Assembly (NCBI GenBank): GCA_029260655.1
Contig: JAJDCU010000021.1
Coordinates: 1-64,000, forward strand
Source: Phycisphaeraceae bacterium
GTDB taxonomy: Bacteria > Planctomycetota > Phycisphaerae > Phycisphaerales > Phycisphaeraceae
Direction of reading: 5' to 3'
DNA: 64,000 bases
The notes under the pieces: model-generated
What the model was told of the DNA's origin: nothing
Databases searched by the model: none
The model's input: the letters and a program-made list of their open reading frames with translations, nothing else
Made by a program: the position numbers and the translations under genes
Shown here: in pieces, positions 8,301-25,852 of the stretch
Position numbering within the stretch: position 1 is the first letter of the stretch
Layout of the letters: each line of letters begins with the position of its first letter

Positions 8301-9458
8301 ATGGCAACGCACGAACTGAGCCCAATGACCATAAACAAGGGCTACTGGATGTCCAGCTGGTACGACCGGCGTGGCAAGCGACGCTGGAAGTCGTTCGGCA
8401 ACATGAAGAAGGTCACCAAGCGCGAGGCCGACCAGCGAAGAAAGGACTTCTGCAGGGAATGGTACGCATCAAGCCAGATCCGCGACAAGGTCGACTCGAT
8501 CGGACTGACCATCAGCGAACTGGCCGATCGCTACTACGTCTTCGCCAGGGAGCACTATCGGAAGCGTGACGGTACGCCCAGCGGGCAGGCGGCGAACATG
8601 CTCCACGCCATGAGGGAACTCACGGATCTGTGCGGCGATACGAAGGTCGCGGACCTGATGGCCATGGATGTGCGGGAGTGCCGCGAGATGATGATCGAGA
8701 AGGACCTGTCCCGGACCACGGTCAACGGCAGGATCAACCGCATCCGCCACATTTTCAAGTGGGGGGCGGGTCGCGACATCGTGCCACCGGACATCTTTAA
8801 CAAGCTAAGGGCGATTGAGCCCCTGAGGGCGGGCCGGTCGAAGGCCAGGGAACCCAAGAGGCGACGACCACTCGACAGATCAGTCATCGATCGCACCCTA
8901 CCGCACCTGCCTGCACCTGTGGCGGCGATGGTCGAGCTCCAGTGGCTGACCGGCATGAGGCCTGGTGAAGTAATGAGGATGCGAGGCTGCGACCTGGACA
9001 CATCAAACAAGGTCTGGGTCTACACACCGGACGGCCACAAGACCGAGCACTACGGCAAGGAGCGGACGATCTACCTCGGCCCCGGTGCCAAGGCGATCGT
9101 CGAGCGGTTCCTCAAGCGCGGTATGACCGAACACTTGTTCAGTCCCAGAGAAGCGGTCGCGGCGATGCACGGATCGCGCGGCGGCAAGCGGAAGAAGAAG
9201 GCGTCGGATTACACGTGGCACTGCGAGCGGTACCGGGCCAACTTCTACCGCCAGGCGATCCACAGGGCCTGCGCCAAGGCCGGGATCGACCGGTGGACGC
9301 CCTACGACCTGCGGCACACTGCAGCCACACGCCTGCGTCGCGAGCACGGCGAGGAGGTCGCCCGGATCATTCTGGGGCACTCGAGGATCGACACGACCCA
9401 GATGTACGGCGAGGTCGACCGCGGCAAGGCGATCTCGGTGGCCGCCGAGAGTTGCTGA
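8301..9458 (+). CDS. int: Tyrosine recombinase/integrase
   Basis: 385 residues, full length. The N-terminal part resembles an arm-binding AP2-like domain (GYWMSSWYDRRGKRRWKSFG), followed by a SAM-like core-binding domain (about 65-170) and the catalytic domain. Catalytic residues seen: Arg220 in LTGMRPGEV, Arg338-His339 in YDLRHTAAT (the usual first His is Tyr335), His360 in ILGHSRIDTT and the nucleophile Tyr369 in TQMYGEV. The beta-hairpin Lys is probably Lys247 in DGHKTEH. The ribosome site AAGGAG lies 9 nt upstream. It ends module A and is followed by a strong hairpin and, about 125 nt on, motif copy 2, as expected for an integrase beside its attachment site. Confidence 0.95.
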   Translation: MATHELSPMTINKGYWMSSWYDRRGKRRWKSFGNMKKVTKREADQRRKDFCREWYASSQIRDKVDSIGLTISELADRYYVFAREHYRKRDGTPSGQAANMLHAMRELTDLCGDTKVADLMAMDVRECREMMIEKDLSRTTVNGRINRIRHIFKWGAGRDIVPPDIFNKLRAIEPLRAGRSKAREPKRRRPLDRSVIDRTLPHLPAPVAAMVELQWLTGMRPGEVMRMRGCDLDTSNKVWVYTPDGHKTEHYGKERTIYLGPGAKAIVERFLKRGMTEHLFSPREAVAAMHGSRGGKRKKKASDYTWHCERYRANFYRQAIHRACAKAGIDRWTPYDLRHTAATRLRREHGEEVARIILGHSRIDTTQMYGEVDRGKAISVAAESC

Positions 9459-9666: not shown

Positions 9667-9755
9667 ACGTCATGATCGCTCAACTGGCACGACTGGCAGA
9701 GTGTCAGCTTACTGAGATGATGCTCTATAAGTGAGCCATCTGATGCAGCCCAAAG

Positions 9756-11439: not shown

Positions 11440-14400
11440 ATGGCGAGGAAAAATAAAGACAACTCTAAAGACCTACAGATAACCAACTTCCGTCACTCTG
11501 ATGCCAAGCGGAAGAACAATCCCCCGGCAAAGATCGCCGCCGAGGGAACCGTCCCTGTTATACCCAAGGCCAAGTACCGCTACTCCCCTCGCCTTGATCC
11601 TAGGCTGCGCTTTGATCCCACCGGATCATCCGGGGGCGATCGCATCCTCGAACTCATCGCCAAAGCCCAGACCAACGAACCACTCACCGATGAAGAAGCG
11701 CAGCTCCTTCGCGACGCGCTGTCTATGCATGAGCCTTGGCTGGAATGGGCCAACAAGCAAGAGGAGCACCAGCGTCTGTTCCGGGGCGGCGGCTTCGCGG
11801 TCGATCCGGTCGCCCTGCACATCCACGAGCGGGTCAGCGCTCAGGCCATCCTCAAAATCGCTGCACGGCAGGACGTCGAGCGATCGCTCTTCGCCGACCC
11901 CCAGCAGTCGTACAACGAAGCCGTGCAGTTCTACAAACACGACATCGACTGGACCAACCGCCTTATCCTCGGTGACTCACTGCAGGTCATGTCCTCGCTG
12001 GCCCGACGTGAAGACCTCGCTGGCAAGGTCCAGATGATCTACTTTGACCCACCGTACGGGATTAGGTTTGCATCGAACTTCCAGCCCGAAGTTGGACAAC
12101 GTGATGTAAAAGATCGAGAGGCTGACCTCACCCGCGAGCCGGAGATGGTCAAGGCTTATCGTGATACTTGGCACCTTGGTGTTCACAGTTACCTCTCATA
12201 CCTACGAGATCGTCTATTCGTGGCGAAAGAACTGATGACAGATAGTGGCAGCATTTTTGTTCAGATAAGCGAAGAAAATCTGCACCGTGTGCGAACGATA
12301 TTAGACGAGGTATTTGGTCCAGAAAACGCGATTGTTACAATTCTCATCAAGAAAAAGGGTGGCCAGAAAGGCGCGTTGCTAGAGGCAGTAAATGATTACG
12401 TGGTGTGGTACACCAAGGATCGCGATCGGGCAAGCGAATCGTACACCCAGCTCTTTGTAGAATCAGGACTGAGCAAGGATCTAACTCGTACATTCCGCTG
12501 GGTCGAGATGCGCGACGGTAGCGTAGTCACATTGTCACAACTGGCCGCCGCAACTGGAATCGATTATTCCCGAAATCCCCAACGACTTGCGCGTGATTAT
12601 CCAGGGGCTCGTCTATTTAAGTGCGAAAATAGTACTTCGGGTGGGTTTCGACGAAATCAAAGCCTTCCCTTCGCATTTGAGGGTCAACAGTTCGATCCTG
12701 GCGTACGAAGAGGTAGTTGCTGGAAGCACACTGCAAATACCGAGAATGATGGCGAACTCTGTGGAATGGAGCGAATGGCCCAGGCCGGGAGGCTCTATGT
12801 GGGTGGCCGGCAGATTGCCTTTAGGCGTTACGCCGATGACTTTGGCCAGAAGGAGCTTACCAACTGGTGGGATGGCCTTGGTGGAGCATCCAGTCCGGTT
12901 TATGTTGTTCAGACCAATGAACGTATAGTAGAAAGATGCGTGCTCATGACGACACGCCCCGGCGATCTCGTTCTCGACCCAACCTGTGGTAGCGGTACAA
13001 CTGCGGTCGTTGCCGAACGGTGGGGGCGGCGATGGATGACTATTGATACTAGCAGAGTCGCACTATCGATCGCAAGACAGCGATTGATGACGACGCCATT
13101 TGAACGATATCAAATAGAAGGAGAGGGCTCCGAGAAACTCAAGAACGGATCTGGTGTCGATCCTGTAGCTGGGTTTAGATATAAGAAGGCTCGACATGTT
13201 ACCAGTTCAGCGATAGCAAACAACTCATACCTTGACCCTATTTTTGTGAAATATCAAAAAGACCTTGATGATGCGCTTAACACATGCAACATTGGGTTAA
13301 GAATGGTAACGACGGATATGCGGGTGAAGCTGGAACGTAAGTTGTTGGCAAAGCAAAAAGACAAGGGCAAGCGAGCGATTACGGATGCCGACCAACGACT
13401 TTGGCATCTGCCCAAAGATAAGTTCGAGCATTGGACAGTGCCAAACCAGACAGATCCTGACTGGCCGGAGGCTTTAATCACTTCAGTTACGACATATCGC
13501 AAGACATGGCGTGCGAAGATGGATGAGATCCATGAAGCGATCGACAAAAATGCTACACCAGTTGACTTAATAAATGAGCCCGAGCGTGTTCCAAGTATTT
13601 TGCGTGTAAGCGGTCCGTTCACGGTGGAGGCGGTGCAGCCGCCGGAGATGTCTCTGGGCGAACCGACGACAACCGATATGCAAGCCGATCCGGATGGCAT
13701 GTTTGGCGGCGAGCCGGATCGGATGCAGACGTGGGAGGTGCGTGAGGTTGAGCCGCTGAACGAGATGGAGGTTAAGAACGTCGAGGCGTACCTGGACAAG
13801 ATGGTGCGTCTATTGCGGATGGACGGAGTGCGCTTCCCGAACAACCGCCAGATGATGTTCAGCCGGCTCGAAGCAGTATATGAAGCGGGCAGTAGCTCTG
13901 GCTTCCACGCCGAGGGCCGATGGGTGTCGGCCGGGGACCAGGACGACGATCCCGAAGGGCCGGTGACGGTGGTCGTGGTAATCGGCCCACAGTATGGCCC
14001 GGTGACCAGCCCACTGATCGTTGAGGCGATGCGGACCGCTTTCCGTCGTGGATACACAGATGTGGTCTTCGCCGGTTTCAGTTTCGACGCCGCAGCCCAG
14101 AGCGAGATTGAGGAGTACAAAGACACGAAGGTTAAACCGCACCTGGCACACATCCGCCCGGATGTGAACCCGGAGATGGAGCCCCTTCTCAAAGAACAGC
14201 CCGGCAATCAACTCTTCACGGTATTCGGCCTGCCACGTATCAGCGTTTCGCCGCCAAATGAGGATAGCGAATTCCAAGTCACGATGGAAGGCGTGGACAT
14301 CTACAATCCGGTGGACAATTCGATCCAGAGCACTGGCGCGAATAAGGTGGCCGCTTGGTTCCTGGATAGCGATTACGACGGCCAGACATTCTGCATCACC

Positions 14401-14637
14401 CAAGCCTTCTTCCCTAACCGCTCGGCTTGGGACAAGCTGGCGAGGGCTCTCAAGGGCGTGGTCGACGAAGACGCATTCGAGGCCTTGAGCGGCACAACGA
14501 GCCTGCCATTCCCGCCAGGCAAGTATAAGCGCCTAGCGGTGAAGGTCATTGATCCACGTGGTAATGAGGTTATGGCAGTACAGGAGGTTGGCCAAGCAGC
14601 GGAGCAATCGAAGAAGAATGGGAGCAAGAAGCGATGA
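11440..14637 (+). CDS. mod: Type III-like DNA adenine methyltransferase (Mod) with a long C-terminal extension
   Basis: 1065 residues from the ATG at 11440 (AAAGG upstream); the frame remains open to 11368. The N6-adenine methyltransferase has motif IV first, IYFDPPYG at about 201-207, and motif I later, DPTCGSGTT at 513-521, which is the beta-class order used by type III Mod subunits. The ~300 residues between them should hold the target-recognition region. After about residue 690, a further ~350-residue acidic region contains TVVVVIGPQYGPVTSPLIVEAM and FAGFSFDA, as seen in a subgroup of large Mod proteins paired with ~1000-residue Res proteins. It would modify DNA and act with Res. The next gene overlaps by 4 nt. 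GC varies along the gene (low near 12100-13300), which hints that the specificity part was exchanged. Confidence 0.93.
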   Translation: MARKNKDNSKDLQITNFRHSDAKRKNNPPAKIAAEGTVPVIPKAKYRYSPRLDPRLRFDPTGSSGGDRILELIAKAQTNEPLTDEEAQLLRDALSMHEPWLEWANKQEEHQRLFRGGGFAVDPVALHIHERVSAQAILKIAARQDVERSLFADPQQSYNEAVQFYKHDIDWTNRLILGDSLQVMSSLARREDLAGKVQMIYFDPPYGIRFASNFQPEVGQRDVKDREADLTREPEMVKAYRDTWHLGVHSYLSYLRDRLFVAKELMTDSGSIFVQISEENLHRVRTILDEVFGPENAIVTILIKKKGGQKGALLEAVNDYVVWYTKDRDRASESYTQLFVESGLSKDLTRTFRWVEMRDGSVVTLSQLAAATGIDYSRNPQRLARDYPGARLFKCENSTSGGFRRNQSLPFAFEGQQFDPGVRRGSCWKHTANTENDGELCGMERMAQAGRLYVGGRQIAFRRYADDFGQKELTNWWDGLGGASSPVYVVQTNERIVERCVLMTTRPGDLVLDPTCGSGTTAVVAERWGRRWMTIDTSRVALSIARQRLMTTPFERYQIEGEGSEKLKNGSGVDPVAGFRYKKARHVTSSAIANNSYLDPIFVKYQKDLDDALNTCNIGLRMVTTDMRVKLERKLLAKQKDKGKRAITDADQRLWHLPKDKFEHWTVPNQTDPDWPEALITSVTTYRKTWRAKMDEIHEAIDKNATPVDLINEPERVPSILRVSGPFTVEAVQPPEMSLGEPTTTDMQADPDGMFGGEPDRMQTWEVREVEPLNEMEVKNVEAYLDKMVRLLRMDGVRFPNNRQMMFSRLEAVYEAGSSSGFHAEGRWVSAGDQDDDPEGPVTVVVVIGPQYGPVTSPLIVEAMRTAFRRGYTDVVFAGFSFDAAAQSEIEEYKDTKVKPHLAHIRPDVNPEMEPLLKEQPGNQLFTVFGLPRISVSPPNEDSEFQVTMEGVDIYNPVDNSIQSTGANKVAAWFLDSDYDGQTFCITQAFFPNRSAWDKLARALKGVVDEDAFEALSGTTSLPFPPGKYKRLAVKVIDPRGNEVMAVQEVGQAAEQSKKNGSKKR

Positions 14638-15938
14638 GCCGTGCTTCAGCTTCAACGCAGCCACCGCCACTTGCCAGCGAAGATGTGGTCAAGCAGATTA
14701 TCCAGCAGGGGTTACTACCGATGCTTTGTGGCGCCACTCTGGGTGACACGGTCGATGCGGTTTCAACTAATAGCGTAAAGGGTTCAAACACTTGTATCCT
14801 GTCAGTGCGGCCGGGCCGTAAATACCCCCATACATTCGCCATCAAACGTAGGCAAAAATTCTCACCATCTGAGGCAGGTCTAGCTCGAGCATTCATGGAT
14901 GAGCTAGAATCAATCTTACCATCTCACCAGCACAAGTATTTTAGTGATTTGGTCACTTCGTCAGTACGGCGTGCAATCGTACGCAGCTTGGGGCATTCCG
15001 ACGATGAGCTGCTGCTAAGGGTGATTGACGAGTTCGTTCGCCTATCTGCTCAAACCTATGAAGGCCAGCGCATCAGTGCCGCAATAGGACTTAATGACAT
15101 TGCTCGAGATACAGGTGTGAAGCTTACTGATATTTGGAGGGAAGACTTCAGCAAAGTCCTCACGAGTGGCGTTGACACTATGCTCACGGTCTCAAGTGAT
15201 GGTAATGTCTATCAATATGAAGCGATCGATAGAAGTGAACATGTGCCATGGGCACCATATCACTTTCGATTAATAGCCGATTGGACGACACCAGAACGTA
15301 TAGGTGTTGTTCTTAATCGAAATGGTGAAATACTAATCTTTAAAAATAAGCGACTATGCTTCGCACACCGACGCGGCGGGTGGGTCCACCTTGTTCACGA
15401 GCCAATACTTAAACAGATGGGCAAGATCGGTAAAATTAAACTCCGCCAGGCTGTGTATGAAACATGCTTAGACGTGTCATTTGCGAGGACTGGTGGGTGT
15501 ATCGGTATAATAAAAAGTACTAAAGCAAGCGCATTGCGTAAAGCGAATAAATCCAATGATGACAACAAGCCCTTTATATCACCTGACGACCTACTAGCGA
15601 CAGAGAAGTCATGTAAATCTAAAACCATCAACTGGCTTGTGAATAAATCTGGCAATTTTACAGTACCGACCTTCCAGGAACTTCCTCGCCGATTTCGACA
15701 AGAACTCGCAGGCATTGATGGAGCAACGATCATTGACCACGAGGGCAATATTCTCGCGGTAGGTGCAATTGTGAGATGTGACGGTGGAAGCAATGCTGGT
15801 GCTCGCAAGGCCGCAGCCAAGGCCTTGTCCCACTATGGGTTGGGGATCAAAGTGTCGGCCGATGGCGAGGTTAACGGCTTTACACATCAAGACGGAATTG
15901 CAGACAAGGATCTTGAACCAATCTTCACGATCGGATAG
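14634..15938 (+). CDS. Sensor protein with a divergent C-terminal DAC (diadenylate cyclase-like) domain
   Basis: 434 residues, soluble. The C-terminal ~90 residues read as a DisA_N/DAC fold: AGIDGATIIDHEGNILAVGA has the DGA motif (362-364), followed by GGSNAGARKAAAKALSHYG where GARKAAA (389-395) stands where cyclases have GTRHRxA, and then IKVSADGEV, the typical final strand. In DisA and CdaA the DGA and RHR motifs bind and cyclise two ATP to c-di-AMP; here His and the second Arg of RHR are replaced by Lys and Ala, so activity may be lost or altered. Residues 1-340 match nothing I recognise and may be the sensor. The gene is coupled to mod (4-nt overlap) and lies 11 nt before res, so it is part of the restriction-modification operon. 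GC is lower than in its neighbours. Confidence 0.72.
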   Translation: MSRASASTQPPPLASEDVVKQIIQQGLLPMLCGATLGDTVDAVSTNSVKGSNTCILSVRPGRKYPHTFAIKRRQKFSPSEAGLARAFMDELESILPSHQHKYFSDLVTSSVRRAIVRSLGHSDDELLLRVIDEFVRLSAQTYEGQRISAAIGLNDIARDTGVKLTDIWREDFSKVLTSGVDTMLTVSSDGNVYQYEAIDRSEHVPWAPYHFRLIADWTTPERIGVVLNRNGEILIFKNKRLCFAHRRGGWVHLVHEPILKQMGKIGKIKLRQAVYETCLDVSFARTGGCIGIIKSTKASALRKANKSNDDNKPFISPDDLLATEKSCKSKTINWLVNKSGNFTVPTFQELPRRFRQELAGIDGATIIDHEGNILAVGAIVRCDGGSNAGARKAAAKALSHYGLGIKVSADGEVNGFTHQDGIADKDLEPIFTIG

Positions 15939-15949
15939 GTCAAAGGCCA

Positions 15950-18900
15950 ATGGCAGAGAATAAAGGCATTCCAGTCCAGCCCGTCGACAAACCGATTATC
16001 TGCGCGCCATATATCGAGCCAGATGATCACTGGCTGTACGACCGCGAAACGGGCATTGCTAATCGGGCGGGGTTCCGGCGTCCGGCGGGTTACTGGTACA
16101 AGACAGACAAGGTGGGTGAGTCTCAACAGCGTTTGTTTTTAGAAGAGGAACGCGACGACCTAGTGCTGGTGAACCGGCTACGTGAGGATGTACGCCGTTG
16201 GCGTGAAGCGGACTACCGAGGTGCAACAAACGTCACCAAGGACCTGTTGCGCTATTGGACACGGGAAGACCGATTCCGTCGACTGTTTTTCTGCCAACGA
16301 GAAGCGGTCGAGACGATCATCTATTTAGCAGAGCTTCGTTTCCCCGATCTGAAGCGGCGAGGTCGCTCAAAGACTGGGTTCGAGAATTTCAAGGTAGGTG
16401 ACAATGACCTGCGGAATATGCTCAAGGGCGATAAGCCTGGCTTTGACCTTTCACAAACAACGGTGTATCCGACCCTGACGGACTTGCCGTACGACGACGG
16501 GCTTATCCCACTAAATCGGATGGGCTGCAAGATGGCGACTGGCGCGGGCAAGACGGTCGTTATGGCGATGTTAATCTCCTGGGCGTTCTGCAACCGCGCC
16601 CGGAATCCACTAAGCACTGAATATCCAAATGCTGTGCTAGTGTGTTGTCCAAATATTACGGTTAGGGAACGCCTGCAGGTGCTTCGTCCCGAAGTAGAGG
16701 GTAATTATTTTGATGACTTCGACATACTCCCGCCGAAGTACCGGCCACTGCTCAACACTGGCAAGGTGCTGGTGACGAACTGGCACGCATTTGCGCAGCC
16801 AGACCGTGAGGGACAAGACGGCTACACAGGCGTGAGGAATCGTGGGCCTGAGACGGCTGAAGATGTGGCACGTCGTGTGCTTGGTGAGATGTTCGACCGT
16901 GCGCCGATCATGGTACTCAACGATGAGGGGCACCACTGCTGGCGTCCGGCACCCGCTGAAGAAAAGCTGGAAGCCCAGGAGCGTCAGGAACTGGAGGAAG
17001 AAAAGCGGGAGGCCACCGTCTGGGTCGAGGGGCTAGACAGGATCAACAATGCCGCAGGACCGGAGAAGCGTGGCATCTCATTGTGCATCGACTTGTCAGC
17101 TACACCCTTCTACATTAAGGGCAGCGGACATCCTGAAGGGCGGCCGTTCCCCTGGTTGGTTAGCGACTTTGGCCTCGTAGACGCGATCGAATGCGGGATC
17201 ACCAAGATTCCACGGTTGCCCGTGCAAGATACAACCGGACGACCGGAGCCAAAATACTTCAAGCTGTGGGAAGCAATTCGCGATGAGCTACAGCCCGCGG
17301 AATTTCTGCCCGGTCGGGCGAAGAAGCCAAAACCCGAGGTCATTTGGAGGGACGCAGAAGACGCACTACAGCAGCTCGCCGGCCAGTGGGTCGAGCGTTT
17401 CAAGTATCTGCATGATGCCAAGCCCGGCGAAGAACATATTCCGCCGGTACTGATCGTGGTATGTGATAACACGGACATAGCTGAGGTCTTCTACCGCAAT
17501 ATCAGTGGTGAGCGCGAAGAAGAGGTGGTCTCAGAGGAAGATATTGTGGAGGCGTCAGGCAAGACACAGAAAGGCCGGCGTCGAGGGAAAGGAAAGAGTG
17601 AGACGCAGACCACTTATGGCGAAGGGCTGGTTCAGGCGCAGTATTTTTCCAATCGACCCAGCGAGTCGAAGCGAACGATTCGGATTGATTCGAAGCTGCT
17701 TGCTCAGGCCGAAACGGATGGCCTAACCGGTTCGCGAGCGGATGCAGCGGAGCAACTTCGAAGGGTGGTGGCAACAGTAGGCAAACCCGGCTCGCCCGGA
17801 GAGCACGTCCGTTGCGTTGTCTCGGTTGCTATGCTGACTGAGGGCTGGGATGCGAACAACGTCACGCACATCCTTGGACTTCGTGCTTTCGGCAGCCAGT
17901 TGCTCTGCGAACAGGTAGTGGGTCGTGGCTTACGTCGCATGGACTACACCCCGGATCCGGAGACGGGGCTGCTAACGGAGGAATATGTGGATGTCTATGG
18001 CATCCCGTTCTCGGTGATCCCATTCAAGGGCAGAACATCGAAACAATCAGCACCTGAAGACAAGCCCAAGCACCACATTAGAGCAATGGATGAGCGGGTG
18101 GGGATGGAGATGCGGTTCCCGGTCGTAGAAGGCTATGCGTTTGCTCTACGCAAAGGAGCGATCCAATGCGATGTCGATTCGATGGAGCCATTGATCATAG
18201 AACCGAACCGTACACCAACGGCTACGTTCGTAATGCCAACGGTAGGTTATCAGGAAGGATCACCGTCCGAGCACGGCGGTCGCTTCCTCTTCGAGGAGCA
18301 GAACCGAGATACTTACTATCAGCAGACTCACCCACAGGCTATCCAGTTCCAGATCACTCGGATGATCGTGGATAGGCTCGCCACACATGCTGATCTTGAA
18401 CGAGATGCAAAACGAAGAGTTTTGCGATTACAGTCACGACATCAACTCTTCCCGCAGGTACTTGCGTTCGTTCGAGACTACGTGAATAAGAAGATCGATT
18501 TCCAAGATTGTCATCCTTGCGAGCTTGGACTTAGCAAGTATGTACAGCGCCTTGTTGAACGTTTCGGAGACGCGATTGAACCTGATGCAAGCGAGGGAGA
18601 AACACCCATTTTGCCGGTATTGAATTCCCACACGGCGATCGGCACAACATCTGACGTCAACTTTAAAACTACTCGCCCGTGTCATATGACAGAGAAGAGT
18701 CACATCAATCAGGTTGTTCTCGACACACAGACATGGGAAAAATCTGCCGCTTTCCGTCTTGAGCAATCATGTGATGTGCTGTTCTACGCCAGAAATGATC
18801 ACATGGGTCTAGTTATACCCTACGAATATCAAGGTGTTGATCACAGCTATGAACCTGACTTCCTGGTCCGCCTGACTACCGGTATCACACTGCTGCTAGA

Positions 18901-19087
18901 GATTAAGGGTTATGAGGACGATCAGACTCGTGCGAAGCACGGTGCTGCGAGACGTTGGGTAGCTGCTACAAATAACTGGGGGCAAATGGGACAATGGTAT
19001 TTTCATCCCTGCCGAAATCCACAACAGCTCGAACGCGAGCTGGCAAACATGCGGGAACGGGTCCGAAACCCTGTAGTAGCCGGGTAA
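15950..19087 (+). CDS. res: Type III-like restriction helicase-endonuclease (Res)
   Basis: 1045 residues. SF2 helicase: Walker A KMATGAGKT (Lys201), Walker B NDEGHH (Asp325-Glu326), motif III DLSATPFY, and motif VI QVVGRGLRRMDY preceded by MLTEGWDANNVTHI. A ~40-residue Lys/Glu-rich linker lies between the RecA lobes (about 515-550). The C-terminal PD-(D/E)XK endonuclease has YEPDFLVRL (Asp970) and LLLEIKGYE (Glu984, Lys986). All expected catalytic residues are present, so the enzyme looks active. Known type III Res proteins translocate or slide on DNA with Mod and cut beside the recognition site. It is the last gene of the operon, 11 nt after the DAC gene. Confidence 0.94.
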   Translation: MAENKGIPVQPVDKPIICAPYIEPDDHWLYDRETGIANRAGFRRPAGYWYKTDKVGESQQRLFLEEERDDLVLVNRLREDVRRWREADYRGATNVTKDLLRYWTREDRFRRLFFCQREAVETIIYLAELRFPDLKRRGRSKTGFENFKVGDNDLRNMLKGDKPGFDLSQTTVYPTLTDLPYDDGLIPLNRMGCKMATGAGKTVVMAMLISWAFCNRARNPLSTEYPNAVLVCCPNITVRERLQVLRPEVEGNYFDDFDILPPKYRPLLNTGKVLVTNWHAFAQPDREGQDGYTGVRNRGPETAEDVARRVLGEMFDRAPIMVLNDEGHHCWRPAPAEEKLEAQERQELEEEKREATVWVEGLDRINNAAGPEKRGISLCIDLSATPFYIKGSGHPEGRPFPWLVSDFGLVDAIECGITKIPRLPVQDTTGRPEPKYFKLWEAIRDELQPAEFLPGRAKKPKPEVIWRDAEDALQQLAGQWVERFKYLHDAKPGEEHIPPVLIVVCDNTDIAEVFYRNISGEREEEVVSEEDIVEASGKTQKGRRRGKGKSETQTTYGEGLVQAQYFSNRPSESKRTIRIDSKLLAQAETDGLTGSRADAAEQLRRVVATVGKPGSPGEHVRCVVSVAMLTEGWDANNVTHILGLRAFGSQLLCEQVVGRGLRRMDYTPDPETGLLTEEYVDVYGIPFSVIPFKGRTSKQSAPEDKPKHHIRAMDERVGMEMRFPVVEGYAFALRKGAIQCDVDSMEPLIIEPNRTPTATFVMPTVGYQEGSPSEHGGRFLFEEQNRDTYYQQTHPQAIQFQITRMIVDRLATHADLERDAKRRVLRLQSRHQLFPQVLAFVRDYVNKKIDFQDCHPCELGLSKYVQRLVERFGDAIEPDASEGETPILPVLNSHTAIGTTSDVNFKTTRPCHMTEKSHINQVVLDTQTWEKSAAFRLEQSCDVLFYARNDHMGLVIPYEYQGVDHSYEPDFLVRLTTGITLLLEIKGYEDDQTRAKHGAARRWVAATNNWGQMGQWYFHPCRNPQQLERELANMRERVRNPVVAG

Positions 19088-19147: not shown

Positions 19148-19266
19148 TGGTTGTAAAGGCTCTGGGAGGCCAGGCTCGGACGGTTGATCACCCCCTCGTA
19201 AGCCCTTAAACTACAAGCGTTAGCAACACACCCCGCGGGTGTAACTCAATGGTAGAGTGTCAGCCT
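19148..19266 (+). repeat. Left copy of a ~119-bp direct repeat (motif copy 3, promoter and tRNA-Gly 5' part)
   Basis: It matches 25695-25812 at roughly four-fifths of positions by eye, and exactly over the tRNA-derived end except for one base before it. It contains TGGTTGTAAAG, a TTGATC-17-TAAACT promoter-like pair (19184-19212) and the first 32 nt of tRNA-Gly. It forms the left boundary of module C. The divergence of the copies suggests an old event. Confidence 0.8.
19235..19266 (+). pseudogene. Truncated tRNA-Gly (5' 32 nt)
   Basis: It is identical to the intact tRNA-Gly at 25781 through the acceptor 5' strand, D-arm and first anticodon-stem strand (to CAGCCT), then diverges before the anticodon. 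No T-arm or acceptor 3' strand follows. The break is followed by TGACACTC (19274-19281), which pairs perfectly with GAGTGTCA (19255-19262). Confidence 0.85.
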
Positions 19267-19329: not shown

Positions 19330-19743
19330 ATGGATAACCTTGCACCGGCACAACGACGCGCAACGATGACCGCCATCCGGTCTCGCGACACGAAACCGGA
19401 GCTTGTCGTTCGGCGTATTACCCACCGACTAGGCTACCGCTTTCGCCTCCACCGAAGCGACTTACCCGGCCAACCCGACCTGACATTCCCAGGGCGTCGT
19501 AAAATCATATTTGTACACGGATGTTTCTGGCATCGTCATCGCTGCAAAGCCGGCCGGTCAATGCCAAAATGCCGCACAGAATTTTGGAAACAGAAGTTCG
19601 ACAATAACGTCGCCCGAGATAAGATCAATTTGCGTCGTTTACGGCGGCAAGGCTGGAAAGTATTAGTTGTCTGGGAGTGTCAAACTAAACTCGCAGATTC
19701 GCCGAGGTTGGAGCAACGACTTAGTGACTTTCTTGTCTCCTAA
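19330..19743 (+). CDS. vsr: Very short patch repair endonuclease (Vsr)
   Basis: 137 residues, normal length for the family. Motifs: RSRDTKPELVVRR near the N-terminus, then GQPDLTFPGRRKIIFVHGCFWH with the catalytic Asp and the zinc/active-site His, and the Cys residues (HRC, PKC) of the structural zinc site. Vsr nicks DNA 5' of T in T:G mismatches that arise when 5-methylcytosine deaminates, and it usually accompanies a C5-cytosine methyltransferase. Such a gene lies in the same module, on the other strand. The start has no clear ribosome site. The duplicated tRNA-Gly promoter about 120 nt upstream could drive it. The gene converges on the helicase (21-nt gap). Confidence 0.93.
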   Translation: MDNLAPAQRRATMTAIRSRDTKPELVVRRITHRLGYRFRLHRSDLPGQPDLTFPGRRKIIFVHGCFWHRHRCKAGRSMPKCRTEFWKQKFDNNVARDKINLRRLRRQGWKVLVVWECQTKLADSPRLEQRLSDFLVS

Positions 19744-19764
19744 GGTCGTTTCATACACACCATA

Positions 19765-22700
19765 TTACTTAAGACCTCTGGCCTTCCTGGCGTCCGGCCT
19801 ACTGCAGATACTGAGGAAGTCGCACTCCTGACACCGACTTTCTTTTTCGCGATCCTTTGCTTTAGCAATTGGGCCTGCTTGAAACTTTCGATCTCGAATA
19901 TTCGCAGCCAAGGTGATCACTTTCTTACGCGCTTGGTCAACAGCGGCGTCGTTTAGATCAACGTCCAATTCGCTGCCCCCCTCATCTAGGTATCTAACCA
20001 GACCGCGTTCTGGCTCGTACTCTAATTCCTTCTTTGCCGCCATGGCATAAATGCTCACTTGTAGCCGCATCCCCTCTTCATCTAACTTGGAACTTACATC
20101 TGACTCCTTGTGTCCTGACTTGAAATCGACTAATGTCACGCGAGGTGGATCATCCAGGCGAATGACATCTATTGCGCCAGATATCAATATTTGCTCCTCT
20201 TCAATAAGGCTTTCAAATGCCTTTTCCGGCTCGAACGCGAGAGTGTCTAACTCAGATGCATATCGCCTCACATAATCTGCAATAATGCGCTTCGCCTTCT
20301 TTTGCATGTTCTCCAAAGGCTCGCCTGTTGTGTAGCGAAGATACATGAGTCCGCGCTGAATCAGAGCGTCTAGTGCTGCATTGAGGGCCTTGGGGTCTCC
20401 AGCTAACTTGGCCCAATCTTTTGGATCCGTGTGGATCGCTCTCATGATGTTGTGAACGCCGCGACCGTAACCGAATGCCTGATCTATAGTTGGGGTGAAA
20501 CCAAGTACCTTACGTAGATAGAAGTCATGTGGGCACTCAAGGTAGTAGCGAAGATCTGAAAACGACGTTACGAGACGTATATCCTTTCGGTATACCGTCT
20601 TTAAGTGCCTGATCTTGCCGGGCACCTCAGCTGGTTTGCGTCGAACAGCAAGTCCAGACGCAGACGCCATAGCCGAGACTTCACGAAAGAACCTAGATAC
20701 TTGAGCGCTGCCATGTGAGACAAATAGATACCTTTCGGCGCGCGTCAGAGCCACATACATAAGACGACGCTCATCGTCGTAGTTGTCATTATCGGAAAGA
20801 GTACTAGGGGTGATAGTCTTAAGGATCTTCCCGTCAAATGGCAACGTCGGTGTTGTCCGCGCTCGATTACTTGGGAATCGTCTCGCAGATACATCCGCTA
20901 AGAACACCGCCGCAAACTCCAATCCTTTAACACCGTGTATGGTACTAATCGTTACAGCATCAGGCGGCACTAAGAATGGCGCTTCGGCACTTCGTGCGTT
21001 TGACGTGCCCCATAGAGCAAGAGCAATTAATTGGTATTTGAAATCACTGGGGCTATTCCATCCAGGAGCCTCAATTCCCTTGACCAAAGTGCTTAGTTGT
21101 CCTAAATGAAATAGTGCGGCTTCTGTGCGTGAATCACTCATGCCCCAGTCGGCCACGCCGGCTTCCTCTAAGATTAAGTGGTAAAGAGTCTGTGGAAATA
21201 CCCGGCGAATCGGTTTTGTCTTCATGACCCATTTCGCGAGCTCAGCACATTTCAATTTCTTTCGGTCGGATGCGCGTATTACTGTTCCACTCAAGCGATC
21301 TTGTATGAGCTTGGAAGCTAACAACATCCTTGTGTTTAAGTCGTCCGCGACCGCTATACCATCCGCCTTGAGCATCCTGACGGCCGCCGTTATGACTGCC
21401 TTAGTGGTTGGCTTGCACCTAAGAGTTGTGTTGATCCTACCTGGCAGACTCGTAGGCTGCGGACCACCCCAGAACTCTTCAATGCCTGCGGATCGTGCAA
21501 ACGCAGCCAGAAATAGTAGAACTTCGGGCTGCGAGAATAGATCCGGACCAGCGCGGACTACTGCAGGAATTCCGGCCTTCTGAAGAGATTTCATATACAG
21601 ACGTGCATCAGTGGAGCTTCTCAGGAGTACCGCAATATCGCCATACGCAATACCGCGTTCGACGTCCGCAGTGTCATGGAATGCACCTCTTCGCTTTGAT
21701 GCATTGACGAGGTGGTTAATACTCTCTGCAATCCACTTGGCCTCTCCTGACCGAGTCGTGAACTGCATAACCGCAGTATGTGATTGCTCTTCATCGAGTC
21801 GGCGTTTGTTACCATGCTCCATATCTGGGTTAGTGAGACCTGGAATTGCCCCGATAGTCTGAGACCACTTGTTCGCTAGCGTAATGATCTTTGGAGTTGA
21901 GCGATAGTTGAACGTGAGGTCTCTCACATCTGAGTCATGCGCCTTTCTCATGGATTCAGCTAAACGAGCCATCAATTCGACGCGGCTCCCTCGGAAGCGA
22001 TAGATCCCTTGACGATGATCCCCGACCGCCGTAAGACTTCCAGACGATCCGACTAAAAGGCTAATCAATCGCTCCTGTACGGGGTTTATATCCTGCACCT
22101 CGTCGACGACGATGCGACTATACCTGCTATTCAAGCTAACAAGACTTGCCTTGTCTTTCTCAAGAAGTCGAACGAGCTCGCTCTGTGACGTGCTAAAATC
22201 CAAGAACCTTCTACATCGAAGATATGCGTAAAGACGAGCAGCTGAAGTTGCAAATGACTTGGCAAGATCGTCGATGCCTACCTTAGTCTTTAACCTCGCC
22301 TCCTTACACCATTCTTTCTCTTCTTCAAGTCGATAAGGCGGATCATCAGAGGGAAGCTTGACATCGAGCTCACAATACTCATTGAGAAGATCATAGGCTT
22401 TCAAGAATGTGATTAGAGACGCATGTTGACCTAGCCCGAGTTCTGTTTGAAATCCCCGTAAACCCAAAATTGGATTGTACCCCCGTTGAACGAGTGCCAA
22501 TCGTGCTCCCTCATCCAGAATGTCGTAATTGTGATATGCATCGGGGCGCAGTTCTCTTAGCATCTGTAGGCAAAAACCGTGTATGGTGCCTACATACATG
22601 CCGCCCAAAGTAACGTCTTCATCACTAGGCGTGACAGCCACAAGATGCCGCCTGATTCTGAATTTCATCTCCTCCGCTGCGCGCTCTGTAAACGTAAACG

Positions 22701-22887
22701 CCACAACCTTAGATCGGTCGATATCTTCGACGCCAACCCACCACGCGATTCGGCGTGCCATCACTTCAGTCTTTCCAGAGCCAGCACCTGCTATGACTAA
22801 TAACCGACGTAGATCTGCTTGAACAATTCCACGCTGCTTATCATTTAATCCATCGAGTAACTGCGTCTTCAGCTTTGATCGCGCCAT
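19765..22887 (-). CDS. UvrD/AddA-like helicase with C-terminal RecB/Cas4-type nuclease
   Basis: 1040 residues from the ATG at 22887 (GGGA 8 nt upstream); an ATG at 22923, inside the methyltransferase gene, is the alternative. SF1A helicase: Walker A AGAGSGKT (Lys39), motif Ia AFTFTERAAEE, Walker B VVDEVQD (262-266), GDHRQGIYRFRG, TIHGVKGLEF and LMYVALTRAER. The C-terminal PD-(D/E)XK nuclease shows TLVDFKSGHKE, followed by the cysteines of an iron-sulphur-type cluster (SRCQECDFLSIC; the first Cys lies far upstream or is missing). The layout is that of one-piece AddA/RecB-like enzymes and of several phage-defence helicase-nucleases. It probably processes or degrades DNA ends in concert with the methyltransferase-marked self/non-self state; this link is inferred from the overlapping operon. 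Confidence 0.88.
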   Translation of the reverse strand: MARSKLKTQLLDGLNDKQRGIVQADLRRLLVIAGAGSGKTEVMARRIAWWVGVEDIDRSKVVAFTFTERAAEEMKFRIRRHLVAVTPSDEDVTLGGMYVGTIHGFCLQMLRELRPDAYHNYDILDEGARLALVQRGYNPILGLRGFQTELGLGQHASLITFLKAYDLLNEYCELDVKLPSDDPPYRLEEEKEWCKEARLKTKVGIDDLAKSFATSAARLYAYLRCRRFLDFSTSQSELVRLLEKDKASLVSLNSRYSRIVVDEVQDINPVQERLISLLVGSSGSLTAVGDHRQGIYRFRGSRVELMARLAESMRKAHDSDVRDLTFNYRSTPKIITLANKWSQTIGAIPGLTNPDMEHGNKRRLDEEQSHTAVMQFTTRSGEAKWIAESINHLVNASKRRGAFHDTADVERGIAYGDIAVLLRSSTDARLYMKSLQKAGIPAVVRAGPDLFSQPEVLLFLAAFARSAGIEEFWGGPQPTSLPGRINTTLRCKPTTKAVITAAVRMLKADGIAVADDLNTRMLLASKLIQDRLSGTVIRASDRKKLKCAELAKWVMKTKPIRRVFPQTLYHLILEEAGVADWGMSDSRTEAALFHLGQLSTLVKGIEAPGWNSPSDFKYQLIALALWGTSNARSAEAPFLVPPDAVTISTIHGVKGLEFAAVFLADVSARRFPSNRARTTPTLPFDGKILKTITPSTLSDNDNYDDERRLMYVALTRAERYLFVSHGSAQVSRFFREVSAMASASGLAVRRKPAEVPGKIRHLKTVYRKDIRLVTSFSDLRYYLECPHDFYLRKVLGFTPTIDQAFGYGRGVHNIMRAIHTDPKDWAKLAGDPKALNAALDALIQRGLMYLRYTTGEPLENMQKKAKRIIADYVRRYASELDTLAFEPEKAFESLIEEEQILISGAIDVIRLDDPPRVTLVDFKSGHKESDVSSKLDEEGMRLQVSIYAMAAKKELEYEPERGLVRYLDEGGSELDVDLNDAAVDQARKKVITLAANIRDRKFQAGPIAKAKDREKESRCQECDFLSICSRPDARKARGLK

Positions 22888-22903
22888 AATTGTTGTCCCG
22901 GAC

Positions 22904-23986
22904 TCATGAGATGAGGTGTTCATCTAAATGTGATCGAATGGCTTTCGCATGACTAATGGCAAATGCTGGAGGCAGAGCATTTCCAATCATCCTGGCAATA
23001 GGCTCCTTGCCGGTGTTCTCGAGAAAGCGGTATTTGCGTGGGAATGTCTGAAGTAGGCCAGCTTCACGCATTGTAATGGCGCGATTAGCGCTAGGATGGA
23101 GGAATCGCCCTTTCGACGGGTTGAAGCATCCGCCGGTTATAGTTGGCGATACTTTGTCCCACGCCATACGGCCATAGACATCTTTGAATCCATCACAGTC
23201 TCTGTGGCACCGCAACTGACGTCGTTTGCCAAGGGCGCTCCGACTACCACCGTCGCGGGGTATCGAAGCAATTAAACGACGAATCTTTAGCGATCTATTC
23301 TCTGGAAGGTCATGAAGATGATCACCGCTCTTCCCTGCTAGTGGCAGGCCGCCGATCGCATCCCTTACAGTTGAAATGCGCTGGTTAGGAATAGGAAGTC
23401 GAGGCTTATCAAAAACACTGGCAAACAACACGAGCCTTCGCCGTCGTTGAGGCACACCAAAGCCTGCAACATCAACTATACTCCATGACATGCGGTATTT
23501 CAGGCGTGTAAGGTGATTTTGGAACCGGCGGAATCTATTATCCTGAGCGAGCCCAGGAACATTCTCCATCATCACAGTCTTAGGACGCAATGCCTCAATA
23601 AAGCGAAGGAAATCGAAAATCAAATCGTTACGATTGTCGATGACTCGGAACGAGCCGTTAAGTGTACGTACTTTCGAAAAACCCTGACACGGTGGGCATC
23701 CAGCTAGTAAGTCCAGCTCAAAAGGAGCGATCTCTTCAAACTCCATAAACTCATCACATTCGACATCCTCTATCGCATCATCCCAGATGCTTGTATCCCG
23801 ATGGTTAAGTGCGTAAGTAGCTGCTGCCTGTGGATCTTTTTCTATTGCCGCGAGGACGTTAAATCCTGCTCGCTGCAAACCCACAGATAAACCGCCGCAT
23901 CCGGCGAATAGATCAACCGCAGTGAATTGGCCCGGACCCGAGTGGCCTAGCCCCCAAGCCAAACTCGATTTGTGTCTTACACTCAT
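22904..23986 (-). CDS. dcm: DNA (cytosine-5) methyltransferase
   Basis: 360 residues, complete. Motif I VDLFAGCGGLSVG (24-36), motif IV with the catalytic Cys100 in GCPPCQGFSK, motif VI ENVPGL (141-146), motif VIII PQRRRRLVLFAS, and motifs IX-X near the end (REAGLLQTFP, IARMIGNALPPAFA). The target-recognition stretch between VIII and IX is short (~90 residues), so it recognises one short sequence. It is paired with Vsr and overlaps the helicase-nuclease, which makes it the protective half of the module. The start at 23986 is 57 nt from the divergent DUF3883 gene, so they share a regulatory region. Confidence 0.95.
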   Translation of the reverse strand: MSVRHKSSLAWGLGHSGPGQFTAVDLFAGCGGLSVGLQRAGFNVLAAIEKDPQAAATYALNHRDTSIWDDAIEDVECDEFMEFEEIAPFELDLLAGCPPCQGFSKVRTLNGSFRVIDNRNDLIFDFLRFIEALRPKTVMMENVPGLAQDNRFRRFQNHLTRLKYRMSWSIVDVAGFGVPQRRRRLVLFASVFDKPRLPIPNQRISTVRDAIGGLPLAGKSGDHLHDLPENRSLKIRRLIASIPRDGGSRSALGKRRQLRCHRDCDGFKDVYGRMAWDKVSPTITGGCFNPSKGRFLHPSANRAITMREAGLLQTFPRKYRFLENTGKEPIARMIGNALPPAFAISHAKAIRSHLDEHLIS

Positions 23987-24043
23987 AGCATGAAGACCTC
24001 AGATATTCGACCAACATGGTAGCATGTAGAAGCGAGGAACGCT

Positions 24044-24925
24044 ATGAGAGGTCAGACGAAAGCATGGTCTGAGAGGGAAGTTGGCCTAATTGTCGCTAAT
24101 CATATGTTTATGCTGGCCGCTGATATGCGTGGTGAGCCTGTAAACAAGTCTGAACAGCGTCGGATTCTCAAAATACAACTGGATAATCGATCTGATGGTT
24201 CGATCGAATTCAAGCATCAGAATCTTAGCGCAGCTCTCGTTAGCATGGGCCTCCCATACATCAAAGGCTACAAGCCTCGCTGTAATTACCAACACTTATT
24301 GTTGGATGAGGTAACCGACTACCTTGCCCAGCACCCCAACTACTTGAATGAGCTTGCCAAAGCACCAGTAGCTGATCCTCTACAGCCATCGCTAGACTCA
24401 GATATCCGCATCGAAGATGTTTTTGTACCTCCGCCTGACCTGATCGAATTTCCATCACAACCTCAGAAGCCCTGGTTAACTAAGCGGGTGGTCAAAATTG
24501 ACTTTGCCCGGCGCGATGCGAATAACCGCGGGCTTGGAAAACTCGGGGAGAAATTCGTTGTTGATGTGGAGAAACGCCGACTTACTGGTACTGGTCGCAG
24601 GGACTTGGCCAAGAAGATCGAGTGGGTTTCAGATTCGATTGGAGATGGTCTAGGTTACGACATCTTGTCATTCAATGAGACCGACGATTCGGAACGGTTG
24701 ATTGAGGTTAAGACTACAGGTCTCGGTAGATTTTTCCCCTTCTATGTCAGTAAAACAGAATTGCGGTGCTCCGAGGATATGTGCCACGCCTATCACCTGT
24801 ATAGGGTTTTTGAGTTCTCTTCATCACCCAAACTCTTCGTCTTGGAAGGAGCGCTATCTAAATCCTGCCACTTAGAGCCCACTCAATATCAAGCAAGAGC
24901 TGGACAGATGGGTACTGACGACTGA
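24044..24925 (+). CDS. DUF3883 (PD-(D/E)XK nuclease-like) protein, possible restriction enzyme
   Basis: 293 residues; ribosome site GAGGA before the ATG. The N-terminal ~110 residues (ARG-rich helices, SEREVGLIVANHMFML) resemble the recognition part of Dpn/ScoMcrA-type HTH or SRA-less specificity domains. The C-terminal DUF3883 domain runs from about residue 155: GLGKLGEKFVVDVEK, GDGLGYDILSFNE and RLIEVKTTG, giving the E...D...ExK active site. DUF3883 proteins are recurrent parts of defence and restriction systems. Here the protein is divergent from the C5-methyltransferase, and it is the best candidate for the cognate endonuclease. It could alternatively be a modification-dependent nuclease. 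Confidence 0.75.
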   Translation: MRGQTKAWSEREVGLIVANHMFMLAADMRGEPVNKSEQRRILKIQLDNRSDGSIEFKHQNLSAALVSMGLPYIKGYKPRCNYQHLLLDEVTDYLAQHPNYLNELAKAPVADPLQPSLDSDIRIEDVFVPPPDLIEFPSQPQKPWLTKRVVKIDFARRDANNRGLGKLGEKFVVDVEKRRLTGTGRRDLAKKIEWVSDSIGDGLGYDILSFNETDDSERLIEVKTTGLGRFFPFYVSKTELRCSEDMCHAYHLYRVFEFSSSPKLFVLEGALSKSCHLEPTQYQARAGQMGTDD

Positions 24926-25681: not shown

Positions 25682-25717
25682 ATGGTTGTAAAAGTGGTTG
25701 TAAAGCCCCTGGAGGTC
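25682..25717 (+). repeat. TTGTAAAAGTGGTTGTAA motif, copy 4
   Basis: ATGGTTGTAAAAGTGGTTGT continues with AAAGCCCCTGGAGGTC. The best-formed tandem of the four copies: two TGGTTGTAAA units 12-13 nt apart. It overlaps the start of the right direct repeat of module C. Confidence 0.6.
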
Positions 25718-25812
25718 AAGCTGAGACGGTTGAACGAGCGATCACAAGCTCTTAGAATACAAGCATTAGCAACACACCCTGCGGGTGTAACTCAATGGTA
25801 GAGTGTCAGCCT
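25695..25812 (+). repeat. Right copy of the ~119-bp direct repeat
   Basis: It is the counterpart of 19148-19266. It carries motif copy 4, the tRNA-Gly promoter and the first 32 nt of the intact tRNA-Gly gene. Divergence is confined to the upstream part; the tRNA-derived end is identical. Confidence 0.8.
25730..25758 (+). promoter_or_regulatory. tRNA-Gly promoter
   Basis: TTGAAC (25730-25735), 17-nt spacer, TAGAAT (25753-25758), 22 nt before the mature tRNA. Spacing and hexamers fit sigma-70. The pair is conserved, as TTGATC-17-TAAACT, in the duplicated copy at 19184. Confidence 0.7.
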
Positions 25813-25852
25813 TCCAAGCTGAATGTTGAGGGTTCGAGTCCCTTCACCCGCT
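25781..25852 (+). tRNA. tRNA-Gly(UCC)
   Basis: 72 nt without encoded CCA. The acceptor stem GCGGGTG pairs with CACCCGC; the D-stem is ACTC/GAGT, the anticodon stem TCAGC/GCTGA with loop CTTCCAA (anticodon TCC), and the T-stem GAGGG/CCCTT around TTCGAGT. All arms close. A strong terminator follows 8 nt later, so it is a single-gene transcript. Confidence 0.96.

What the first reader, a model, noticed from the sequence alone, without database searches (positions are those of the whole stretch)
11440..19087. Three-gene operon: type III-like Mod, divergent DAC-domain protein, Res
Seen: mod (DPPY, CGSGTT), a 434-residue gene ending in a DGA...GARKAAA DAC-like domain, and res (helicase plus PD-ExK) are coupled (4-nt overlap and 11-nt gap). 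Known: DAC domains make c-di-AMP through DGA and RHR motifs; type III restriction normally needs only Mod and Res. Inferred: the middle protein may sense infection, or control Res, through a nucleotide signal or by binding ATP. Its RHR motif is altered (R-K-A), which suggests a new product or a sensor-only role.
Basis: partly seen in the sequence, partly recalled or inferred. Interest (0 to 1): 0.9.

Follow-up and report, generated by a model that had tools for sequence, protein, structure and literature searches.

The report
DAC-like cargo gene in restriction operon
Between the two genes of a bacterial DNA-restriction system sits a third gene whose protein is a distant, altered relative of enzymes that make the signal molecule c-di-AMP; it looks like one of many swappable anti-phage extras that this kind of restriction operon carries, and its nearest tested relatives are needed for phage defence.

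Summary
The operon is real: mod (11440-14637), a 434-aa gene (14634-15938, 4-nt overlap), res (15950-19087, 11-nt gap). The middle protein (here DACL) does end in a divergent diadenylate-cyclase (DAC) domain. Single-sequence Pfam evidence is sub-threshold (E 0.004), but a 19-member family profile matches DACs at 97% (E 1.4e-10) and DS-2-like, CBASS-linked DACs over 254 columns (96%, E 6e-9). DGA is invariant. RHR is altered family-wide (R-T/K-x), followed by a new K-[IV]-S-x-D-G motif. Structure prediction failed (one sequence, pLDDT 34). DACL is not a fixed restriction part. In 51 mod-res pairs of this type III-like branch, 34 carry intervening genes: TIR, GmrSD, PIN, SIR2, OLD-type, kinase and others. 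Only the window's pair holds DACL inside; a second has it just downstream, and a third genome has DACL abutting a mod remnant. Other relatives end a BREX operon, lie beside CBASS, or stand alone on plasmids. Best reading: an exchangeable defence cargo module, probably a PrrC-style guard or effector using ATP or a related nucleotide. Catalysis and product are unproven. New variant of a known kind.

The parts
11440..14637 (+). mod: type III-like DNA methyltransferase, 1065 aa (DPPY at residue 203, CGSGTT at 516)
   Evidence: Pfam N6_N4_Mtase 7e-27; PADLOC MTase_III 2.7e-137
14634..15938 (+). DACL: 434-aa middle gene, ATGA overlap with mod; GC 48.0% and GC3 44.8% against 54% and 58-60% for mod and res
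   Evidence: family of relatives
15441..15935 (+). C-terminal DAC-like domain of DACL (about residues 270-434)
   Evidence: Pfam DAC sub-threshold E 0.0041; hhalign 96.9%, E 1.4e-10 against a DAC profile
15057..15065 (+). Y-E-G motif (residues 142-144) of the N-terminal part; its YE is shared with DS2_3-like proteins
15717..15725 (+). DGA motif (residues 362-364), invariant in the family
15804..15812 (+). R-K-A (residues 391-393) in place of RHR; the first R is conserved
15849..15866 (+). K-V-S-A-D-G (residues 406-411), family signature K-[IV]-S-x-D-G
15950..19087 (+). res: SF2 helicase plus PD-(D/E)XK nuclease, 1045 aa, BPTD_3080 family
   Evidence: NCBIfam NF046055, 917 bits over cut-off 800; motifs

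Best explanation
DACL is an exchangeable anti-phage cargo module that sits in an accessory slot between mod and res of a BPTD_3080-type type III-like restriction operon. It has an N-terminal part (shared 'YE' motif) joined to a C-terminal divergent DAC domain. Translational coupling links its expression to that of Mod and Res. Shown here: homology, operon structure, slot exchange, recurrence at restriction, BREX and CBASS loci. Inferred: when infection occurs or when phage blocks restriction, the N-terminal part triggers the DAC-like domain to bind or convert ATP or a related nucleotide, which stops growth as a second line of defence, in the manner of PrrC inside the EcoprrI restriction locus but with nucleotide chemistry instead of tRNA cleavage.
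For: Homology to DACs and to DS2_3-like DACs over both the N-terminal part and the DAC domain. DGA, the first R of RHR, K406, S408 and D410-G411 conserved in at least 90% of 19 diverse sequences, so the pocket is under selection and not decaying. Slot exchange: 34 of 51 mod-res pairs have an intervening same-strand ORF of at least 140 aa, 27 of at least 250 aa, with TIR/SEFIR, GmrSD+HNH, PIN, SIR2, DUF3800, subtilase, protein kinase, OLD-like ATPase, AAA_16, GHKL and HNH domains; the nearest mod-res pairs carry a TIR or GmrSD+PIN there. DACL recurs at defence loci: RES-BroN-MOD-DACL-GHKL-OLD-UvrD (L075), mod remnant plus DACL (L076), PglZ-BrxL-DACL (L034), convergent with patatin/CD-NTase/E1-E2/JAB CBASS (L008). 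Solo copies on plasmids argue it can work alone. GC3 of DACL (0.448) differs from mod and res (0.602, 0.576). Literature: DS-2 DAC validated in defence (PMC13092281); PrrC and RM-coupled suicide genes (PMC12707154).
Against: No function of any DACL member has been tested. No structure could be obtained. RHR is needed for ATP binding and catalysis in M. tuberculosis DacA (PMC3328451), and DACL has R-K-A. Several relatives have no defence gene nearby (L032, L077), and one planctomycete family has up to three DACL-like hits per genome, so the wider family may have housekeeping roles. Guard behaviour is analogy only.
Confidence: 0.5

Rival explanations
1. Dedicated regulator: DACL binds or makes a nucleotide that switches Res (or Mod) on or off, so the three genes form one obligate system.
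For: Tight translational coupling mod-DACL-res; recurrence next to mod in G489 and, as a remnant, in G491.
Against: Only 1 of 51 surveyed pairs has DACL between mod and res; close pairs have other genes there or none. DACL occurs without mod-res.
Confidence: 0.17
2. Signal synthase: DACL makes a cyclic or linear di-nucleotide for a receptor encoded elsewhere, a CBASS-like pathway split from its effector, or one that disturbs host c-di-AMP signalling.
For: DAC homology; DS-2 pairs a DAC with CBASS and 15 of 30 DS-2 DAC homologues lie with CBASS (PMC13092281); A. vitis DACL adjoins CBASS; the host has its own CdaA-type enzyme, so c-di-AMP signalling is probably present.
Against: No SMODS CD-NTase or SAVED receptor found in the host genome; no receptor in the operon; H and last R of RHR missing.
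Confidence: 0.18
3. Non-catalytic sensor: the DAC-like domain only binds a nucleotide (ATP, c-di-AMP or a phage-altered nucleotide) and reports it by shape change.
For: RHR altered in all family members that hold the motif; RHR to AAA abolished ATP binding and activity in M. tuberculosis DacA (PMC3328451).
Against: DGA and the first R strictly kept; related DS2_3-like proteins also lack RHR, and DS-2 defence needs predicted catalytic DAC residues (PMC13092281).
Confidence: 0.12

Closest known systems
DS-2 system DAC (NCBIfam NF053872 DS2_3_antiphage; DefensePredictor, PMC13092281)
   Same: DAC domain after an N-terminal region with a conserved YE motif; DGA kept, RHR lost (R-F/Y/L-N in DS2_3-like proteins read here); tied to defence loci; 7 of 10 DACL members hit the model weakly, best E 2.9e-5; profile match 95.9%.
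   Different: The window protein scores 10.9 bits against a cut-off of 630; it is shorter (434 aa against 576 model positions), separated by a long branch, and lies inside a restriction operon, not CBASS.
Canonical diadenylate cyclases (DisA, CdaA, CdaS; Pfam PF02457)
   Same: Same domain by profile-profile match; DGA and the first R of RHR.
   Different: H and last R of RHR missing; extra K-[IV]-S-x-D-G; different N-terminal part; no solved relative better than E 0.006.
Type III restriction-modification (EcoP15I type; m4C type III group, PMC8259958)
   Same: Mod with DPPY and an AdoMet motif; Res with helicase and C-terminal PD-(D/E)XK.
   Different: BPTD_3080 branch with an accessory slot between mod and res; the m4C group's extra gene is a helicase-like ATPase 5' of mod.
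PrrC inside EcoprrI (type IC locus), PMC12707154
   Same: Accessory gene embedded in a restriction locus; slot logic.
   Different: PrrC is a tRNA anticodon nuclease; DACL has a nucleotide-cyclase-like domain; guard behaviour untested.

Membership tests
Diadenylate cyclase (PF02457 DAC) | Sequence homology to the DAC domain | tested here: met
   hhalign 96.9%, E 1.4e-10; single-sequence Pfam only 17.1 bits against gathering 27
Diadenylate cyclase (PF02457 DAC) | DGA motif | tested here: met
   Residues 362-364; invariant in 19 of 19
Diadenylate cyclase (PF02457 DAC) | RHR motif needed for ATP binding and c-di-AMP synthesis | tested here: not met
   R-K-A; no family member has RHR; requirement from PMC3328451
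Diadenylate cyclase (PF02457 DAC) | DAC fold in a structural model | tested here: inconclusive
   Single-sequence models pLDDT 34.5 and 32.1
Diadenylate cyclase (PF02457 DAC) | Makes c-di-AMP | not testable with these tools
   Needs a biochemical assay
DS-2 DAC (NF053872) | Score over the curated cut-off | tested here: not met
   10.9 bits against 630
DS-2 / CBASS | CD-NTase and phospholipase in the same operon | tested here: not met
   None among the genes around the operon; no SMODS or SAVED hit in the genome
Type III restriction-modification | Adjacent Mod (beta-class MTase motifs) and Res (helicase plus PD-ExK) | tested here: met
Type III restriction-modification | ATP-dependent cleavage and site-specific methylation | not testable with these tools
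   Needs a biochemical assay
PrrC-like guard | Accessory gene inside the restriction operon | tested here: met
PrrC-like guard | Activated when restriction is inhibited | not testable with these tools
   Needs a phage or anti-restriction assay

The most novel reading that the evidence does not exclude
A family of DAC-derived proteins with a rewritten second motif (R-T/K-x ... K-[IV]-S-x-D-G) makes a nucleotide product other than c-di-AMP and acts as a self-contained immune module that plugs into restriction, BREX and CBASS loci; the mod-res gap of BPTD_3080-type systems is a general docking slot for such guards.
Probability: 0.25. Interest if true: 0.85.

Novelty: new variant of a known kind. 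Interest (0 to 1): 0.62.

Why it matters
In the papers found here, DAC domains have been tied to phage defence only through CBASS (DS-2; PMC13092281). DACL extends this to restriction and BREX loci with an altered active site, and it points to a naturally variable slot in a widespread restriction family that can be mined for further defence genes.

Tried and rejected
Two genome-contig scans and four viral-contig scans for relatives found none; whole-genome, plasmid and phage searches did. A profile of ten members was too divergent for the contig search. PDB hits of P0001 alone (synaptotagmin, E 0.06) were rejected as chance. PADLOC has no model for DACL. The Galperin 2023 paper on DACs is not held. 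Idea rejected: DACL as a conserved third subunit of type III systems (1 of 51 pairs). Idea not settled: a single origin of the mod-DACL link (tree unresolved).

Full report
Observation. Mod starts at 11440 (1065 aa) and ends at 14637; the middle gene runs 14634-15938 (434 aa) with an ATGA overlap; res runs 15950-19087 (1045 aa) after an 11-nt gap. Mod has DPPY and CGSGTT, and Res has a Walker A motif, DEGH and a C-terminal PD...EIK. Mod is a type III methyltransferase by PADLOC (2.7e-137), and Res is a member of NCBIfam's BPTD_3080 restriction endonuclease family, over its cut-off.

The middle protein (DACL). On its own it hits Pfam DAC only at E 0.004, below the gathering score. Relatives were found in genomes of the same phylum (planctomycete-like by gene content, my inference), on Agrobacterium vitis, Paracoccus and Vescimonas plasmids, and on a gut contig labelled as phage. 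Five of ten relatives hit DAC, best 3.3e-6, and seven of ten hit NF053872, the DAC of the DS-2 anti-phage system, best 2.9e-5. A profile of 19 members matches a profile of nine DACs from the same class of bacteria at 96.9%, E 1.4e-10; the latter match solved diadenylate cyclases. It matches a profile of seven DS2_3-like proteins at 95.9%, E 6e-9, over 254 columns that include the N-terminal YE motif. So the C-terminus is a DAC domain by descent, and the whole architecture is related to DS-2 DACs. The DS2_3-like proteins used are below NF053872's own cut-off where scored, so 'DS2_3-like' is the right term.

Motifs. DGA is invariant. Of RHR only the first R is kept: R-K-A in the window, R-T-A/T/L/K and others elsewhere, never RHR. 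A motif K-[IV]-S-x-D-G is nearly invariant in DACL. DS2_3-like proteins have R-F/Y/L-N and S-E-D-G, and the nine DACs of the class mostly R-H-x. In M. tuberculosis DacA, RHR to AAA abolishes ATP binding and synthesis (PMC3328451), so canonical c-di-AMP synthesis by DACL is doubtful. But DS-2 defence is lost when two predicted catalytic residues of its DAC are mutated (PMC13092281), so loss of RHR does not prove inactivity. The host genome has its own CdaA-type enzyme and no SMODS CD-NTase or SAVED domain.

Is it part of the restriction system? I fetched 56 further regions with Res of this family in the phylum plus seven close relatives and called ORFs. Of 51 mod-res pairs on one strand, 34 have an intervening same-strand ORF of at least 140 aa and 27 one of at least 250 aa. 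ORF calling was mechanical, so small ones may be spurious, but Pfam confirms TIR/SEFIR, DUF3800, HNH, SIR2, subtilase, protein kinase, PIN, GmrSD+HNH, Bro-N, KilA-N, OLD-like ATPase, AAA_16, GHKL and a deaminase-like domain with HATPase_c_4. The two closest pairs to the window (Res about 60%, Mod about 50% identical) hold a TIR protein, or GmrSD and PIN proteins, in the place of DACL. DACL was found between mod and res only in the window, and downstream of mod (gap of about 400 bp) in G489. In G491 it directly follows a 41-residue remnant of a mod C-terminus (63% identical). DACL's GC3 (0.448) differs from mod and res (0.602, 0.576). I conclude that the gap is an accessory slot and DACL one of its cargoes.

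Other contexts. In L034 a DACL relative is the last gene after PglZ and BrxL of a BREX operon (BrxL_ATPase 2.9e-128; PglZ 2.2e-4, weak). In A. vitis it is convergent with a patatin/CD-NTase/ThiF/JAB CBASS operon. In Paracoccus it lies between insertion sequences. In G385 and G649 no defence gene is evident. A tree puts the window protein in a fully supported clade of nine that mixes restriction-linked, CBASS-adjacent and solo members; order inside is unresolved.

Mechanism. The best account is a swappable guard or effector: coupled expression with Mod and Res, sensing by the N-terminal part, nucleotide chemistry or binding by the DAC-like domain, and growth arrest as a back-up when restriction fails. 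This follows the logic of PrrC in EcoprrI and the proposal that restriction loci are coupled to suicide genes (PMC12707154). Homology, slot and recurrence are shown; trigger, product and outcome are inferred.

Limits. No usable structure. The neighbourhood sample is one phylum plus plasmid and phage records. No enrichment test against random operon gaps was made.

Noticed in passing
19148-19266 and 25695-25812: A 119-bp direct repeat (83% identical) whose last 32 nt are the exact 5' part of tRNA-Gly(tcc) (25781-25852) flanks the Vsr / UvrD-PDDEXK / Dcm / NOV_C block, an att-like sign of an island inserted at the tRNA 5' end.
   Followed up: partly
9694-9708: A 15-nt near-match (14/15) to the tRNA-Gly core lies just after the integrase (8301-9458) and could be the left end of the unit that holds mod-DACL-res; the score is only slightly above background.
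   Followed up: partly
19330-24925: Neighbouring defence genes: Vsr endonuclease, UvrD helicase fused to PD-(D/E)XK, Dcm-like C5 methyltransferase, and a NOV_C protein that matches PADLOC PDC-S36 (3e-98).
   Followed up: no
L190 (G000:C34), ORF 886-1995 +: The host's own CdaA-type diadenylate cyclase reads HDMG where HDGA is usual, with RHR intact.
   Followed up: no
L137, 10182-11657 +: A mod-res slot gene that Pfam reads as a deaminase domain plus HATPase_c_4.
   Followed up: no
L160, 10367-13917 -: An AAA-type ATPase (by eye) and a subtilase sit as a pair in the mod-res slot.
   Followed up: no
L100-L128 (genomes of one family, f99): DACL-like proteins of about 470-560 aa occur in up to three copies per genome in this family, hinting at a non-defence or expanded role.
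   Followed up: no
G045:C2:46850-47998: A Res-like match reported inside an open frame of 24589 residues, either a giant gene or an effect of masked sequence.
   Followed up: no
L032, 7938-8255 -: The solo DACL gene of G385 lies near a divergent LexA-like (winged-helix) 105-aa ORF, judged by eye.
   Followed up: no
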